Origin: Methanotorris formicicus Mc-S-70
GTDB lineage: Archaea > AGJL01 > Methanococci > Methanococcales > Methanococcaceae
NCBI RefSeq assembly: GCF_000243455.1
Contig: NZ_AGJL01000017.1
Coordinates: 1 to 32,761, forward strand
Direction: 5' to 3'
Length of the DNA: 32,761 nucleotides
In this document: in pieces, positions 9,463 to 32,735 of the stretch
Numbering within the stretch: position 1 is the first letter of the stretch
Layout: each line of letters begins with the position of its first letter
Made by a program: the position numbers and the translations under genes
The notes under the pieces: generated by a model
Seen by the model: only the letters and a program-made list of their open reading frames with translations
Told to the model about the DNA's origin: nothing
The model's database searches: none

Positions 9463-10224
9463 ATGGAGGAAATTATAAAAGAAATAAGATTAAATACATC
9501 AAAGAAAGCGTTAAAATTGATAAAAGAAAAAAATTTGATAGATTTGGATGTATATGACAATTTGATGAATTTGTTGAATAGAAGGATTAAGGGCGAGAAG
9601 TTTTACAGATTTGATGTGAGGCATAAACCTACATGCGTTGTAGCATTTAGTGGTGGAGTTGATAGTTCTGCCTCTGCAATAATCTCAAAAAGTATTTTTG
9701 ATGTTGTTGGGGTTACCGTGTACTCAAAATACATCATGCATGAAGAGGTTAAAAACCATATAAAAAACCTCTCAAAAAAATTAGATATAAAGCATGAATT
9801 TATAGATATTAATATGGATGAGATTGCTAAAGATGTTGAAGATGGAAGATACCACCCGTGTGGGAGATGTCATAAGGCAGTTGAAGAGGCGGTTATAAAT
9901 TATGCGAAAAATAAAGGCATTAAATTTGTAATCTTTGGAGATCTACTGTCTGTTGGGTATTTGTCAATTATCCCAATGGATGATGGGTTAATAAGGATAA
10001 ATATGCCTGCCTTCCTATCCCTAACAAAGAATGAAAACAGGAAAATTTTAAGACAGAATAACATAGAAATAAAACTCCCATACGGTTGCCCATTGGTAAA
10101 AAAAGCACATAAACATAGGCACATGAAGAAATTCACAATCCAAAGAATTTTGAGGGAGGTTAGAGCACAGGTTGTAGACAAAGATGAAGGGTTAAAAAAC
10201 ATTTTGGATATACTTAATCTATGA
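9463..10224 (+). CDS. PP-loop ATP-pyrophosphatase-fold protein (N-type), probable sulfur-transfer or tRNA-modifying type
   Basis: The 253-residue protein has a clear PP-loop, VVAFSGGVDSSASAIISKS (about residues 62-80), which binds and adenylates substrates with ATP. Downstream are HPCGRCHKAVEEAV with a CxxC pair, the GDLLSVGYLSI loop, and PYGCPLVKKAHKHRHMKKF near the C-terminus. The three cysteines in CGRC and YGC resemble thiolation or Fe-S enzymes of the TtcA/TtuA/LarE superfamily, but the exact family and substrate are not recognised. Initiation at 9463 is supported by CGTGA at 9454-9458, the usual spacing with one mismatch. The stop overlaps an ATG at 10221 that polB probably does not use, leaving a 38-nt gap to the likely polB start. 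Confidence 0.8.
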   Translation: MEEIIKEIRLNTSKKALKLIKEKNLIDLDVYDNLMNLLNRRIKGEKFYRFDVRHKPTCVVAFSGGVDSSASAIISKSIFDVVGVTVYSKYIMHEEVKNHIKNLSKKLDIKHEFIDINMDEIAKDVEDGRYHPCGRCHKAVEEAVINYAKNKGIKFVIFGDLLSVGYLSIIPMDDGLIRINMPAFLSLTKNENRKILRQNNIEIKLPYGCPLVKKAHKHRHMKKFTIQRILREVRAQVVDKDEGLKNILDILNL

Positions 10225-10262
10225 CTTATCATTCACCGCAAAATTTCTTTTTGGTGTTTAAA

Positions 10263-13076
10263 ATGGATGCATTAGTTGATTTAATATATAAAACTGAAAA
10301 TAATAGGGCAATTATTTATCTTTATTTGATTCAGAAGATATTGAAGGACGAGAATTTTAAACCTTATTTTTATGTTGAGTTAAATAACAACAATATTGAA
10401 AAAATTGAGGAATTTTTAAAAAAGAACAATCTTTCCCATTACGTTGAGAGTATAGAAGTAGTCAAAAAACAAATAATCAACAAAGAAAAAGAAGTTTTAA
10501 AAATAATTACAAAACATCCAAAATACGTTCCTAAGTTGAGGATTTTGAAGGAATTTGATGAGGTTTTGGATATTTACGAGCATGACATACCATTTGCAAA
10601 GAGATATTTGATAGATAACAAAATCATCCCCATGACATATTGGGATTTTGAAAAAAATAAAATAAAAAGCAGAGGTATTCCAAAATTAAAGGCTATAGCA
10701 TTTGATATGGAAGTTTATAATAGAAATTCCGAACCAAATTCACAAAAAGACCCAATACTAATGGCAAGTTTTTGTGCAGAGGATTTTAAGAAAGTTATTA
10801 CTTACAAACCATTTAACCATGAGCGTGTTGAGGTTGTTGAGGATGAAAAGGAACTCATTAAGAGAATCATTGAAGTTCTAAAGGGTTATGATATCATTTA
10901 CACCTATAATGGGGATAACTTTGATTTTCCTTATTTAAAGAAAAGAGCAGAGATTTATGGAATAAAATTAAATTTAGGAAGGGATGGGGAAGAAATAAAA
11001 ATCTCAAGAGGGGGTATGCATTTAAGAAGTTACATCCCTGGGAGGGTGCATATTGATTTATATCCAATAGCAAGGAGATTACTCCATCTAACAAAGTATA
11101 AGTTGGAAGATGTTACATTGGAACTTTTTGGGATTAAGAAGTTGGAAGTTGGGCATCAGAACATAAGTAAACTTTGGGAAGAAAATGATGAAAAACTTAT
11201 TGAATATTCATTTCAAGATGCACTTTATACATTTAAAATTGGGGAGTATTTTTTGCCGTTGGAGGTGATGTTTTCAAGGATTGTTAATCAGACACTCTTT
11301 GAGATATCAAGGATGAGTAGTAGTCAGATGGTGGAATATCTCCTATTAAAAAATGCATTTAAAAACAACATCATTGCCCCAAATAAACCTTCAAATGAAG
11401 AATATCAGAGAAGATTAAAAGAGAGTTACGAGGGGGGTTATGTTAAAGAACCCATAAAGGGGATGCATGAAGGCATCATCTCTTACGATTTTAAAGCATT
11501 ATATCCCTCAATTATAATAAGCCACAACATAAGCCCAGATACCATTGATTGTGAGTGTTGTAAGGATGAATCAGAAAAGATTTTGGAACATTGGTTCTGT
11601 AAAAAGAAAGAAGGGCTAATACCAAAAACATTGAGGAATTTGGTTGAGAGGAGAATGAATATTAAGAAAAAAATGAAAGAAAAAGCAAAAAAAGGAGAGG
11701 TTGATAATGAATATAAACTCTTTGATTATGAACAGAAGTCATTGAAGATTTTGGCAAATAGTCATTATGGTTATTTAGCATTTCCAAGGGCGAGGTGGTA
11801 TTCAAAAGAGTGTGCAGAGGTTGTTACATACTTGGGGAGAAAATACATACAAGAAACAATAAAAGAGGCGGAGAAATTTGGATTTAAGGTTATATATGCT
11901 GATAGCGTTACGGAAGATACTGAAATAATAGTCAAAATAAATGAAGAAATAAAATTCCTAAAAATTAAGGACTTGTTTAAAAATGCCGATTATACAATTG
12001 GAGAAAAGGAATATTATGCCCTAAATAATGTTTATGCTTTAACTTTAAATGATGATGGTAAGTTGGTTTGGAAAAGAGTGCCTTATGTAATGAGGCATAA
12101 AACAAATAAAAACATCTATCGTGTTTGGATTACAAATAAATGGTATGTTGATGTTACAGAAGACCATTCTTTAATTGGTTATTTAAATAAAAAATTCGTT
12201 GAAATCAAACCATGCAAAATAGGGAATGCCTACTTAATAATTTTGGATAAATCAACACTCAACACATACAATTTTGTAAAAGTTAAAAAAGTTGAAAAAA
12301 TTAATTATAATGGATATGTTTATGACATTGAGGTTGAAGATACACACAGATTTTTTGCAAATGGAATTTTAGTCCATAATACTGATGGTTTTTATGCAGT
12401 TTGGAAGGAAAAGATTGATAAAGATGAACTTATCAAAAAGGTTCATGAATTTTTAGATATGATAAATTCAAAACTTCCAGAAAATATGGAGTTGGAGTTT
12501 GAAGGCTTTTATAAGAGAGGCATCTTTATAACAAAGAAAAGATATGCCATAATAGATGAAAACAACAAAATAATCATCAAAGGTTTGGAATTTGTAAGGA
12601 GGGATTGGGCAAACATTGCAAAAAAAACACAAAAAGCAGTTTTAAAGACGCTTTTAATTGAGGGGAATGTGGATAAAGCAACAAAAATCATTCAAAATGT
12701 GATAGATGATTTAAAGAAGGGGAAAGTAAATAAAGAGGATTTAATAATATACACCCAACTAACAAAAGACCCAAAAGAATATAAAACAACCGCCCCGCAT
12801 GTTGAGGTTGCAAAGAAAATAATAAAAAAAGGTGGAAGGTTAAGGATAGGGGATGTTATTGGTTATATTATAACGAGTGGTGAAAAATCAATAAGTGATA
12901 GGGCAAAACTTCCAGAGGAAGCAAAGGATTACGATGTTGAATACTACATAGAAAACCAAATCCTTCCACCAGTTTTAAGGATTATGGAGGCATTGGGGGT
13001 TTCAAAGGAAGAACTTAAAAATTTTGGTAAGCAAGTTACACTGGATGATTTCTTCACAATAAATAAAAATAAATAG
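10263..13076 (+). CDS. polB: Family B DNA polymerase precursor containing one mini-intein
   Basis: Replicative/repair DNA polymerase with 3'-5' proofreading. The 937-residue precursor gives a 778-residue mature enzyme after removal of a 159-residue intein (11904-12380). Exonuclease motifs are AFDMEVYNRN (ExoI), YTYNGDNFDFPYL (ExoII) and YSFQDALYTF (ExoIII). Polymerase motif A is YDFKALYPSI, and motif B is LKILANSHYGYLAFPRARW. Motif C (YADTDGF) is split by the intein after YAD and restored as TDGF. KKRYAI and the C-terminal TLDDFF (PIP-box-like, following GKQV) are present. An ATG at 10221 overlaps the upstream gene, but GGTG at 10253-10256 and the family N-terminus favour 10263. Convergent with the minus-strand gene at 13101. 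Confidence 0.96.
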   Translation: MDALVDLIYKTENNRAIIYLYLIQKILKDENFKPYFYVELNNNNIEKIEEFLKKNNLSHYVESIEVVKKQIINKEKEVLKIITKHPKYVPKLRILKEFDEVLDIYEHDIPFAKRYLIDNKIIPMTYWDFEKNKIKSRGIPKLKAIAFDMEVYNRNSEPNSQKDPILMASFCAEDFKKVITYKPFNHERVEVVEDEKELIKRIIEVLKGYDIIYTYNGDNFDFPYLKKRAEIYGIKLNLGRDGEEIKISRGGMHLRSYIPGRVHIDLYPIARRLLHLTKYKLEDVTLELFGIKKLEVGHQNISKLWEENDEKLIEYSFQDALYTFKIGEYFLPLEVMFSRIVNQTLFEISRMSSSQMVEYLLLKNAFKNNIIAPNKPSNEEYQRRLKESYEGGYVKEPIKGMHEGIISYDFKALYPSIIISHNISPDTIDCECCKDESEKILEHWFCKKKEGLIPKTLRNLVERRMNIKKKMKEKAKKGEVDNEYKLFDYEQKSLKILANSHYGYLAFPRARWYSKECAEVVTYLGRKYIQETIKEAEKFGFKVIYADSVTEDTEIIVKINEEIKFLKIKDLFKNADYTIGEKEYYALNNVYALTLNDDGKLVWKRVPYVMRHKTNKNIYRVWITNKWYVDVTEDHSLIGYLNKKFVEIKPCKIGNAYLIILDKSTLNTYNFVKVKKVEKINYNGYVYDIEVEDTHRFFANGILVHNTDGFYAVWKEKIDKDELIKKVHEFLDMINSKLPENMELEFEGFYKRGIFITKKRYAIIDENNKIIIKGLEFVRRDWANIAKKTQKAVLKTLLIEGNVDKATKIIQNVIDDLKKGKVNKEDLIIYTQLTKDPKEYKTTAPHVEVAKKIIKKGGRLRIGDVIGYIITSGEKSISDRAKLPEEAKDYDVEYYIENQILPPVLRIMEALGVSKEELKNFGKQVTLDDFFTINKNK
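11904..12380 (+). other. PolB mini-intein (no homing endonuclease) in polymerase motif C
   Basis: Protein-splicing element of 159 residues. It starts with Ser (block A SVTEDTEIIVKI). Block B is VDVTEDHSLIGY with the conserved T-x-x-H. It ends with block F VYDIEVEDTHRFFANG and ILVHN, with terminal His-Asn before the +1 Thr of TDGF. No LAGLIDADG motif exists between blocks B and F. Only a short linker (about LIILDKSTLNTYNFVKV) stands where an endonuclease would lie. The insertion point, YAD/TDG, is a known polymerase intein site. M. jannaschii is recalled to have a full-size intein there. Splicing residues look intact, so the element is probably active in splicing but immobile. Confidence 0.93.
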
Positions 13077-28832: not shown

Positions 28833-31800
28833 ATGGAAAAACCATGGGTTGAAAAATATAGACCAAAAACATTGGATGAAGTCGTTGGGCATGAAGAAAT
28901 TGTAAAAAGGCTTAAAAAGTATGTAGAAAAAAAATCCATGCCGCATTTGTTATTTAGCGGTCCTCCGGGAGTTGGGAAGTGCTTAACTGGAGATACAAAA
29001 GTTATTGTAAATGGAGAGATTAGAGAAATTGGGGAAGTTGTTGAAGAAATAAGCAATGGAAAGTTTGGAACTACCTTAACTAACAACCTAAAAGTTTTAG
29101 GAATTGATGAATATGGAAAAATCAGGGAATTTAATGTTCAGTATGTCTATAAAGATAAAACAAACGCTTTAATAAAAATAAAAACTAAAATGGGTAGAGA
29201 GCTAAAGGTAACTACTTATCATCCTTTATTGGTAAATAATAAAAATGGAGAAATAAAATGGGAAAAAGCAGAGAATTTAAAGGTTGGAGATAAGTTAGCA
29301 ACACCAAGATACATCTTATTTGAAGAGACCGATTACAATGAAGAGTTGGCAGAGTGGCTTGGTTATTTCATTGGAGATGGACATGCAGATAAGGAATCAA
29401 ATAAGATAACCTTCACAAACAGTGATGAAAAACTTAGAAAGAGATTTGCTGAACTTACTAAAAAATTGTTTAAGGATGCAAAAATAAAAGAGAGAATACA
29501 TAAGAATAGAACACCAGATATTTATGTTAATTCAAAGGAGGTAATAGCATTAATTGATAAGCTTGGCTTAAGGGGGAGTAAGGCAGATAAAGTTAGAATT
29601 CCAAAAGAAATAATAATGAGCATGGCATTAAAAGCATTTTTAAGAGCATATTTTGATTGTGATGGGGGTGTTGAGAAAAATTCAGTAGTTTTATCAACTG
29701 CAAGCAAAAGGATGGCTGAAGATTTAGCTTATGCATTGTCAAGGTTTGGAATAATTGCAAAATTAAGAGAAAAAATAAATAAAAACAATAACAAGACATA
29801 TTACTATATTGTAATATCCAACTCTTCAAATTTAAAGGCATTTTTAGAAAGTATTGGATTTAGCCATGAAAGGAAACTTAAAAAGCTTTCAAATATTATA
29901 AAAGATGAAAATCCAAACTTGGATGTTATAACTATCGACAAAGAGAAAATAAAATACATTAGAGATAGATTAAAAGTTAAATTAACAAGGGATATTGAAA
30001 AAGATAATTGGAGTTATAATAAATGCAAAAAAATTGCTCAAGAACTTTTAAATGAAATATATTACGGATTAGAAGAGCTAAAAGAAATTGAAAAAACATT
30101 AGAAGAGAGTATATTAATTGATTGGAATGAAGTTGAAAAAAGAAGAAAAGAAATTGCAGAAAAAACTGGAATAAGAAGTGATAGGATTTTAGAATACATA
30201 AAAGGTAAAAGAAAACCAAGTTTAAAGAATTACATAAAAATTGCTAATGCTTTAGACAAATATGTTGAAAAAATCATTGATGCAATGAGAATATTTGCTA
30301 AGAAATATTCAAGTTATGCAGAGATAGGAAGAATACTCAATACATGGAATTCAAGTATAAGGATTTATTTAGAAAGCAATACACAAGAAATTGAAAAGCT
30401 TGAAGAAATTAGAAAGGTTGAGCTTAAACTTGTAAGAGATATTCTTAACGATGAAAAATTAATGGATAGTATTAGTTATGTATTATTCTTAGCATCTAAC
30501 GAAATCTACTGGGATGAAATCGTTGAGATTGAACAATTAAATGGGGACTTTACAATCTATGACTTGCATATCCCAAAGTATCATAACTTCATTGGTGGGA
30601 ATTTACCAACAATATTGCATAATACAACTGCCGCTTTGTGTTTAGCAAGAGATTTATTTGGAGAAAATTGGAGAGACAACTTCTTAGAGTTAAATGCCTC
30701 TGTTTCAAAAAATACTCCAATACTGGTTAAAATAGATGGAAAAATAAAAAGAACCACATTTGAAGAACTTGATAAGATATACTTTAACACCAATGATGAA
30801 AATGAGATGTATAAAAAAGTTGATAACTTAGAGGTTTTAACGGTTGATGAAAACTTCAAAGTTAGATGGAGAAAAGTTTCTACAGTAATTAGGCATAAAG
30901 TAGATAAAATCTTGAGAGTTAAGTTTGAAGGTGGATATATAGAACTAACAGGAAACCACTCCATTATGATGCTTGATGAAAATGGTTTAGTGTCAAAGAA
31001 AGCAAGTGATATAAAAGTTGGGGACTGTTTGTTAAGTTTTATAGCCAACACTGAAGGAGAAAAAGATAAATTGGATTTAAAAGAGTTTGAACCAAAGGAT
31101 ATAACTTCAAGAGTTAAAGTAATTAATGAGTTTGAGTTTGATGAAGATACTGCATGGATGCTTGGATTGTATGCTGCTGAGGGAGCCGTAGGATTTAGAG
31201 GAGAAACTTCCGGGCAAGTAATCTATACATTAGGCAGTCATGAGCATGATTTAATTAATAAATTAAATGATATTGTTGATAAAAAAGGATTTAGCAAATA
31301 TGAAAACTTCACAGGTTCTGGATTTGATAGAGAAAGATTGTCTGCTAAGCAGATTAGAATATTGAATACTCAACTTGCAAAATTTGTTGAGAAAAACTTC
31401 TACAATGGAAATGGAAGGAGAGCAAAGAATAAAAGAATCCCAGATATTGTATATGAGTTAAAAGAAAATTTAAGAGTTGAATTCTTAAAAGGATTAGTTG
31501 ATGGAGATGGCTATGGAGGTTGGGGAGGAGTTGTTAGAATATCATCAAAATCTGAGGATTTATTAATAGATACAGTATGGTTAGCAAGAATTTCTGGAAT
31601 TGAAAGTTCAATATTTGAAAATGAGGCAAGATTGATTTGGAAAGGAAAAATGGGGTGGAGGAAGGGTAATTTATTGCCAAGTGAGCCAATAATCAAAATG
31701 ATTAAAAAGTTAGATGGTAAAATAAATGGAAATTGGAGATATATATTAAGACACCAACTCTATGAAAATAAAAAGAGGGTCTCAAAGGACAAAATTAAAC

Positions 31801-32735
31801 AGATTTTAGAAATGGTTGATGTTGAGAAATTATCTGATGGAGAAAGAAAGATTTATAATTTATTGAAAAAACTGTCTGAAACAGAGATTCATGCATTGAT
31901 TGTTAAAGAGATTGAAGTTATTGACTACAATGACTTCGTCTATGATGTGTCAGTTCCAAATAATGAAATGTTCTTTGCAGGAAATGTGCCAATATTGTTA
32001 CATAATTCAGATGAAAGAGGGATAGATGTTATTAGGACAAAAGTTAAGGATTTTGCAAGAACAAAACCGATTGGGGATGTTCCATTTAAAATAATATTCT
32101 TAGATGAGAGTGATGCTTTAACAAGTGATGCACAAAACGCATTGAGAAGGACAATGGAAAAGTATTCTGATATTTGTAGGTTTATCCTCTCTTGCAACTA
32201 CCCAAGCAAAATCATCCCTCCAATCCAATCAAGATGTGCAATATTCAGATTCTCTCCATTGAAAAAAGAAGATGTTGTTAAGAAGTTGAAAGAAATTGCT
32301 GAAAAAGAAGGTTTAACTTTAACTCCTGAGGGACTTGAGGCAATTATTTATGTTTCAGAAGGAGATATGAGGAAGGCAATAAATGTCCTTCAAACAGCGG
32401 CAAGTGTCTCAAAGGAGATTGATGAGGAGGTTGTTTATAAGGTATCATCAAGAGCAAGACCAGAAGAGATTAAGAAGATGATTGAATTGGCGTTGGAAGG
32501 GAAGTTTATTGAAGCAAGAGAGTTGTTGTATAAGTTGATGGTTGATTGGGGAATGAGTGGAGAGGACGTGATATTGCAGATATTTAGGGAGATTCCAAGT
32601 TTAAACATAGATGAGAGGAAAAAAGTTGAGTTAGTTGAAGCGTTAGGGGAGTGTGATTACAGAATCGTGGAGGGGGCAAACGAAAGGATCCAATTGAGTG
32701 CGTTGCTGGCAAAGATGTGCAATATGGGTAAATAA
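28833..32735 (+). CDS. rfcS: Replication factor C small subunit precursor with two inteins
   Basis: AAA+ clamp-loader subunit that opens PCNA. The 1300-residue precursor carries inteins of 548 and 436 residues. Mature RfcS would be 316 residues, the normal family size. Exteins read MEKPWVEKYRPKTLDEVVGH and LLFSGPPGVGK, then (after intein 1) TTAALCLARDLFGENW and NFLELNA, then (after intein 2) SDERGIDVIRTKVKDFA. IIFLDESDALTSDAQNALRR is Walker B, SCNYPSKIIPPIQSRC carries sensor 1 and the arginine-finger SRC motif, and GDMRKAINVLQTAA is sensor 2. GGTGA at 28824-28828 sets the start. Without splicing, the P-loop (GPPGVGK/T) is broken and the protein would be inactive. Confidence 0.97.
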   Translation: MEKPWVEKYRPKTLDEVVGHEEIVKRLKKYVEKKSMPHLLFSGPPGVGKCLTGDTKVIVNGEIREIGEVVEEISNGKFGTTLTNNLKVLGIDEYGKIREFNVQYVYKDKTNALIKIKTKMGRELKVTTYHPLLVNNKNGEIKWEKAENLKVGDKLATPRYILFEETDYNEELAEWLGYFIGDGHADKESNKITFTNSDEKLRKRFAELTKKLFKDAKIKERIHKNRTPDIYVNSKEVIALIDKLGLRGSKADKVRIPKEIIMSMALKAFLRAYFDCDGGVEKNSVVLSTASKRMAEDLAYALSRFGIIAKLREKINKNNNKTYYYIVISNSSNLKAFLESIGFSHERKLKKLSNIIKDENPNLDVITIDKEKIKYIRDRLKVKLTRDIEKDNWSYNKCKKIAQELLNEIYYGLEELKEIEKTLEESILIDWNEVEKRRKEIAEKTGIRSDRILEYIKGKRKPSLKNYIKIANALDKYVEKIIDAMRIFAKKYSSYAEIGRILNTWNSSIRIYLESNTQEIEKLEEIRKVELKLVRDILNDEKLMDSISYVLFLASNEIYWDEIVEIEQLNGDFTIYDLHIPKYHNFIGGNLPTILHNTTAALCLARDLFGENWRDNFLELNASVSKNTPILVKIDGKIKRTTFEELDKIYFNTNDENEMYKKVDNLEVLTVDENFKVRWRKVSTVIRHKVDKILRVKFEGGYIELTGNHSIMMLDENGLVSKKASDIKVGDCLLSFIANTEGEKDKLDLKEFEPKDITSRVKVINEFEFDEDTAWMLGLYAAEGAVGFRGETSGQVIYTLGSHEHDLINKLNDIVDKKGFSKYENFTGSGFDRERLSAKQIRILNTQLAKFVEKNFYNGNGRRAKNKRIPDIVYELKENLRVEFLKGLVDGDGYGGWGGVVRISSKSEDLLIDTVWLARISGIESSIFENEARLIWKGKMGWRKGNLLPSEPIIKMIKKLDGKINGNWRYILRHQLYENKKRVSKDKIKQILEMVDVEKLSDGERKIYNLLKKLSETEIHALIVKEIEVIDYNDFVYDVSVPNNEMFFAGNVPILLHNSDERGIDVIRTKVKDFARTKPIGDVPFKIIFLDESDALTSDAQNALRRTMEKYSDICRFILSCNYPSKIIPPIQSRCAIFRFSPLKKEDVVKKLKEIAEKEGLTLTPEGLEAIIYVSEGDMRKAINVLQTAASVSKEIDEEVVYKVSSRARPEEIKKMIELALEGKFIEARELLYKLMVDWGMSGEDVILQIFREIPSLNIDERKKVELVEALGECDYRIVEGANERIQLSALLAKMCNMGK
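28980..30623 (+). mobile_element. RfcS intein 1, full-size with LAGLIDADG endonuclease and HTH-like insert
   Basis: A 548-residue intein placed after GPPGVGK of the P-loop. It starts with Cys (CLTGDTKVIVNGEIRE, block A). Block B is LKVTTYHPLLVNN with T-x-x-H. Two endonuclease motifs, LAEWLGYFIGDGHAD and FLRAYFDCDGGVE, supply the catalytic acidic residues. After about residue 370 of the intein it has an added charged helical region with an XRE-like helix-turn-helix (KEIAEKTGIRSDRILEYIKG) near 30141-30258. It ends with FTIYDLHIPKYHNFIGG and ILHN before Thr+1. The site corresponds to the M. jannaschii RFC-1 intein site as remembered. Confidence 0.94.
30699..32006 (+). mobile_element. RfcS intein 2, full-size with LAGLIDADG endonuclease
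   Basis: A 436-residue intein splitting NA/SDERG. It starts with Ser (SVSKNTPILVKIDGK, block A). Block B is YIELTGNHSIMMLDENG. Endonuclease motifs are TAWMLGLYAAEGAVGF and FLKGLVDGDGYGGW. It ends VYDVSVPNNEMFFAGN and PILLHN before Ser+1. Only 25 extein residues separate it from intein 1. In the first motif, where many active enzymes have an Asp, the acidic residue is a Glu (AAEGAV). This still fits known intein endonucleases, so activity cannot be judged. Confidence 0.94.

What the first reader, a model, noticed from the sequence alone, without database searches (positions are those of the whole stretch)
11904..12380. Natural 159-residue mini-intein inside DNA polymerase motif C
The element has all splicing blocks (Ser1, TxxH, terminal HN, +1 Thr) but no endonuclease domain, at a site (YAD/TDG) where archaeal polymerases usually carry full-size inteins. 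It appears to be an immobile splicing relic that can persist only because its removal by splicing is essential. It may be useful as a compact thermophilic splicing domain of known ancestry.
Basis: partly seen in the sequence, partly recalled or inferred. Interest (0 to 1): 0.6.

Follow-up and report, generated by a model that had tools for sequence, protein, structure and literature searches.

The report
Endonuclease-free intein in archaeal DNA polymerase
A methanogen's DNA polymerase gene carries a compact self-splicing protein insert that has lost the DNA-cutting enzyme which normally spreads it; it is a real but known kind of element, probably acquired from a neighbouring archaeal family and held at a site where complete, stripped-down and empty versions coexist in related genomes.

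Summary
Confirmed: window 11904-12380 is a 159-residue mini-intein (Ser1, TEDH, His-Asn, +1 Thr) in family-B polymerase motif C (YAD|TDG, the Pol-c site). A confident model has the HINT fold; there is no endonuclease domain, and purifying selection is strong. It is not unusual: among 37 same-site inteins found in Methanococcales and Thermococcales, 14 are HEN-less and 23 full-size. The same-genus genome has an empty site. The intein's splicing core is 85-86% identical to those of Methanocaldococcus genomes whose polymerase exteins are only 74-76% identical, so it was most likely acquired laterally from a Methanocaldococcus-like donor. Minis are polyphyletic (AU p=0.0002), so HEN state changed repeatedly. 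All 23 full inteins carry an 11-residue basic loop just after block B and all 14 minis lack it, which suggests a DNA-recognition element that goes with the HEN (inference). Whether the HEN was lost before or after transfer is unresolved. The claim that it persists only because splicing is essential is untested, and PolB is non-essential in several archaea. New member of a known kind.

The parts
10221..11903 (+). N-extein of family B DNA polymerase (exonuclease domain, motifs A and B, up to YAD of motif C)
   Evidence: ORF; PF03104 and PF00136
11904..12380 (+). 159-aa Pol-c mini-intein
   Evidence: PF14890/TIGR01445/TIGR01443; model pLDDT 95.5 with PDB mini-intein matches
11904..11906 (+). Ser1, the splicing nucleophile at the N-terminal junction (block A start)
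   Evidence: sequence; invariant in alignments A1 and A3
12156..12167 (+). Block B TEDH (residues 85-88)
   Evidence: sequence; invariant in A3
12186..12197 (+). Short hairpin turn (residues 95-98, NKKF) where all full-size Pol-c inteins have an 11-residue basic loop
   Evidence: the loop is low-confidence (96-102, pLDDT<50) in the full-length model
12243..12269 (+). Linker (about residues 114-122) at the place where G002/G005-type inteins hold the LAGLIDADG endonuclease
   Evidence: alignment; LAGLIDADG_3 and Hom_end in G002 intein
12375..12380 (+). C-terminal His158-Asn159 (block G)
   Evidence: sequence; TIGR01443
12381..13076 (+). C-extein beginning with +1 Thr (TDGF), thumb domain, stop
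   Evidence: 92% identical to the same-genus intein-free PolB
11880..11903 (+). Last 8 codons before the insertion: 7 of 8 informative sites match Methanocaldococcus G001 rather than congener G035 (possible co-conversion footprint)
   Evidence: caveat: several of these G035 states look derived

Best explanation
The element is a cis-splicing HINT mini-intein of the Pol-c allele family. Expected mechanism (from established intein chemistry, not shown here): N-O acyl shift at Ser1, transesterification to +1 Thr, cyclisation of Asn159, then an O-N shift rejoining ...YAD-TDGF... to give an active 792-aa polymerase; the precursor should be inactive because motif C is split. The intein entered this Methanotorris-like lineage laterally from a Methanocaldococcus-like donor (supported by sequence). 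It has neither the LAGLIDADG homing endonuclease nor an adjacent basic loop, so it cannot home by itself and is kept by selection against splicing-defective mutants. Whether it arrived already HEN-less (shared with G001) or lost the HEN after arrival is unresolved.
For: Family and structure matches. Same-site full-size relatives with intact LAGLIDADG motifs show what was removed. Core identity G000-G001 86% and G000-G002 85%, against extein 76% and 74%; G001-G002 is core 86% and extein 93%; in every other Methanocaldococcus pair the core is less conserved than the extein. G000, G001 and G002 form a supported intein clade (100/97 protein, 97/91 DNA), while the G000 C-extein is 92% identical to intein-free G035. 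Purifying selection: dN/dS 0.05-0.16 among the core pairs G000/G001/G002 and G008/G014. The G000 mini linker is nearest to the G001 mini linker (62%) rather than the G002 full one (38%).
Against: Splicing was not observed. The best core tree puts G000 beside full-size G002 (94/84), not mini G001, although G000+G001 is not rejected (AU p=0.19). The co-conversion footprint is confounded by derived bases in G035. Only two Methanotorris-like genomes were available.
Confidence: 0.88

Rival explanations
1. The intein arrived as a full-size, homing-competent element from a G002-like donor and lost its HEN independently of G001.
For: The core tree places G000 with full-size G002 (94/84); HEN state changed at least 5-6 times on supported branches, so another loss is cheap; G002 keeps both LAGLIDADG motifs; the possible upstream co-conversion tract is what homing leaves.
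Against: G000 and G001 share linker length and sequence (62% vs 38% to G002) and the same NKKF hairpin; a shared mini ancestor is not rejected (p=0.19).
Confidence: 0.42
2. Vertical inheritance from the Methanococcales ancestor with loss in G035 and most other genomes.
For: The site is occupied in both families of the order.
Against: Intein core identity to Methanocaldococcus exceeds extein identity by 10 points, opposite to all other Methanocaldococcus pairs; the G000 intein groups inside the G001/G002 clade; all other same-family PolB sites inspected are empty.
Confidence: 0.08
3. Assembly or deletion artefact, or a dead intein that no longer splices.
For: Draft assembly in 121 contigs; no wet data.
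Against: All catalytic residues intact, frame open, confident HINT model, dN/dS far below 1, same architecture in three other genomes.
Confidence: 0.03
4. The mini-intein is kept as a regulatory switch (conditional splicing of PolB).
For: Conditional splicing is described for other inteins (general knowledge); the intein is strongly conserved.
Against: No element or condition found here; close relatives do without it.
Confidence: 0.04

Closest known systems
Full-size Pol-c inteins of Methanocaldococcus (G002; G005, identified by its record as Methanocaldococcus sp. SG1) and Thermococcus (the PI-TliI-type Pol-2 intein, recalled)
   Same: Same insertion site, same Ser1/TEDH/HN/+1 Thr, splicing core 70-85% identical
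   Different: They carry a LAGLIDADG HEN and an 11-aa basic loop (377-391 aa in total)
HEN-less Pol-c inteins of Methanocaldococcus G001/G008/G014 and ten Thermococcales genomes (156-162 aa)
   Same: Same site, size and architecture; these include a 157-aa type that I recall as the third T. aggregans Pol intein (lead only, not tested)
   Different: 56-81% identity; different linkers, several probably of separate origin
Nanoarchaeum equitans PolB split mini-intein (NEQ068/NEQ528)
   Same: Same Pol-c position (PMC549080); HEN-less; PDB match weak (5oxw)
   Different: Split in two genes and trans-splicing; here one contiguous gene
Phage PolB inteins (Aes123 PolB1, PDB 9hth; virus record IMGVR_UViG_3300034064_000893)
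   Same: HEN-less HINT inteins in phage family-B polymerases; the virus record is at the same YxD|TD site, 39-42% identical
   Different: Viral host gene; Aes123 is split, and its site was not tested here

Membership tests
Intein (HINT protein-splicing domain) | Ser/Cys/Thr1, block B TxxH, C-terminal HN (or equivalent), Ser/Thr/Cys +1 | tested here: met
   S1, T85-E-D-H88, H158-N159, +1 T
Intein (HINT protein-splicing domain) | HINT fold | tested here: met
   AlphaFold2 pLDDT 95.5; PDB mini-inteins as best matches, TM-score 0.85-0.90
Intein (HINT protein-splicing domain) | In-frame insertion in a conserved site, with intein-free alleles | tested here: met
   Same-genus G035 reads YSDTDGF without insert
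Intein (HINT protein-splicing domain) | Self-excision with extein ligation | not testable with these tools
   Needs expression or proteomics
Mini-intein (no homing endonuclease) | No HEN domain inside the intein | tested here: met
   Only PF14890 matched; the G002 relative gives LAGLIDADG_3 and Hom_end
Pol-c intein allele | Insertion between YxD and TDG of PolB motif C, nearest relatives at the same site | tested here: met
   Best matches in two orders are all at this site
Homing (mobile) intein | Active endonuclease in cis | tested here: not met
   Absent; no Pol-c-type HEN elsewhere in the genome

The most novel reading that the evidence does not exclude
At Pol-c, the HEN and the 11-residue basic loop in the splicing domain behave as one exchangeable homing module: a DNA-recognition loop is gained or lost together with the HEN. 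HEN-less alleles are not dead ends but switch with full ones by recombination and cross between families, perhaps homing in trans with the endonuclease of a full-size allele.
Probability: 0.25. Interest if true: 0.55.

Novelty: new member of a known kind. Interest (0 to 1): 0.33.

Why it matters
As a single element it is an ordinary mini-intein. With its relatives it gives a clean natural series at one site (empty, full with intact LAGLIDADG motifs, HEN-less) within one archaeal order, plus a parallel set in Thermococcales. That allows direct tests of the homing-cycle model, of whether HEN-less inteins can move between lineages, and of a predicted DNA-contact loop. It is also a compact, probably thermostable splicing domain with full-size relatives for comparison.

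Tried and rejected
One origin for all mini Pol-c inteins: rejected (AU p=0.00017). One clade of the four Methanococcales minis: marginal (p=0.039). Orphan endonuclease acting in trans in the same genome: only other inteins' HENs at 26-30% identity. Viral or plasmid vehicle: one distant phage-type polymerase record (39-42%) and weak Campylobacter phage hits; read directly, the Campylobacter phage CC_R7 insert lies about two residues downstream of Pol-c. Decay of the LAGLIDADG acidic residues in G005/G006/G010 (D to E): not taken as inactivation, since Glu can serve in such enzymes (general knowledge). Clean co-conversion tract: the strongest Methanocaldococcus-like window in the gene is at the insertion, but G035 itself seems derived there, so it stays suggestive. 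The phylum-wide search added no new groups.

Full report
OBSERVATION. The PolB ORF (10221-13076, 951 aa) contains a 159-codon in-frame insert at 11904-12380 between YAD and TDGF of motif C. It matches Intein_splicing and the intein N- and C-terminal models, has Ser1, TEDH, His-Asn and +1 Thr, and no LAGLIDADG or Hom_end match. The AlphaFold2 model (pLDDT 95.5, pTM 0.89) matches solved mini-inteins (MvuTFIIB, Aes123 PolB1, Pho RadA, a hyperthermophile PolII intein).

RELATIVES AT THE SAME SITE. Of 36 Methanococcales genomes, nine carry a Pol-c intein: minis in G000 (this genome, 159 aa), G001 (160), G008 and G014 (158), and full-size ones in G002 (386), G005 (381), G006 (379), G010 (377) and G011 (391). 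In Thermococcales, 28 of 94 genomes have a Pol-c intein, 10 mini (156-162 aa) and 18 full (389-390 aa). HEN-less alleles are therefore 14 of 37 and not exceptional.

ORIGIN. The splicing core (residues 1-92 and 131-159) of G000 is 86% identical to G001 and 85% to G002, while the extein around the site is only 76% and 74% identical. G001 and G002, close host relatives (extein 93%), have cores 86% identical. In every other Methanocaldococcus pair the core is less conserved than the extein. Core trees put G000, G001 and G002 together (100/97 protein, 97/91 DNA), whereas the C-extein is 92% identical to intein-free G035. At synonymous sites G000-G002 has dS 0.81 in the intein and 1.57 in the extein. 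The best reading is lateral acquisition from a Methanocaldococcus-like donor. The eight codons before the insertion match G001 at 7 of 8 informative sites, against 102 of 602 over the whole gene; this is the most donor-like window of about 770. Several G035 bases there look derived, so I count this as suggestive of co-conversion only.

WAS THE HEN LOST BEFORE OR AFTER TRANSFER? The linker of G000 is closest to that of mini G001 (62%) and not G002 (38%), which favours a shared HEN-less ancestor. The core tree weakly prefers G000+G002 (94/84) and does not reject G000+G001 (AU p=0.19). This is unresolved.

REPEATED CHANGE OF HEN STATE. All minis as one clade are rejected (AU p=0.00017); supported branches require at least five changes (six in DNA). 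Direction is not given by the trees. Minis with near-identical cores to full alleles can have unrelated linkers (G122 mini vs G045 full: core 97%, linker 31%), which hints at replacement of the central module rather than simple deletion, but G045 is from a metagenome assembly and may be chimeric.

A CO-VARYING LOOP. Besides the HEN, all 23 full inteins have an 11-residue basic loop (for example within TTKKRNAKKIGDR) about seven residues after the block B His; all 14 minis and the virus record have a short hairpin turn. On supported branches there are five independent contrasts, all concordant (sign test p=0.0625, the minimum possible with five). In the full-length model, of modest confidence (pLDDT 77), the loop (96-102) is disordered between two strands. 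PI-SceI has its DNA-recognition region as an insertion in the HINT domain (PMC8966425), so a DNA-contact role here is plausible but inferred.

SELECTION AND ESSENTIALITY. Core dN/dS is 0.05-0.16 for the pairs among G000, G001 and G002 and for G008-G014, so the intein is under purifying selection. An insertion in the catalytic motif nevertheless means unspliced protein should be inactive (inference).

PRIOR ART. Pol-c is a known intein site (position III; also used by the split N. equitans intein and the Mimivirus intein, PMC549080). Mini-inteins and the homing cycle are well described (for example PMC1654191 and PMC6801210). A 2014 survey lists a polB-c mini-intein for M. igneus Kol 5 (PMC4071816); the congener G035 examined here has no intein in its PolB, and I could not reconcile the two because that paper's site names may differ.

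VERDICT. Real, correctly delimited, a new member of a known kind. The added value is the lateral origin, the coexistence of empty, full and mini alleles, and the loop that co-varies with the endonuclease.

Noticed in passing
window 28833-32735: Replication factor C small subunit (1300-aa frame) contains two large inteins with LAGLIDADG matches; the first also has an HTH_3 domain match at residues 438-477.
   Followed up: no
L037 1309-4560: A virus contig (IMGVR_UViG_3300034064_000893) encodes a phage-type family B polymerase with a 161-aa HEN-less intein at the same YGD|TDS site, sharing YVMRHKTNKNIY with the window's intein.
   Followed up: partly
PolB motif C of Methanocaldococcus genomes G004, G007, G009, G012, G013: Intein-free alleles mostly read YID or YVD at the site, while all nine intein-bearing alleles of the order read YAD; this could reflect co-conversion or target resistance.
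   Followed up: partly
L104 (G045) vs L131 (G122): Full and mini Thermococcales Pol-c inteins with 97% identical cores but 31% identical linkers, suggesting module exchange or a chimeric metagenome assembly.
   Followed up: partly
L099 (G040): A Thermococcus metagenome mini-intein whose core is 82% identical to Methanocaldococcus full-size inteins although the exteins are only 55% identical: an apparent between-order transfer.
   Followed up: partly
L148: Campylobacter phage CC_R7 DNA polymerase has a HEN-less intein apparently inserted two residues downstream of Pol-c (YNDTD|S...HN|SCY).
   Followed up: no
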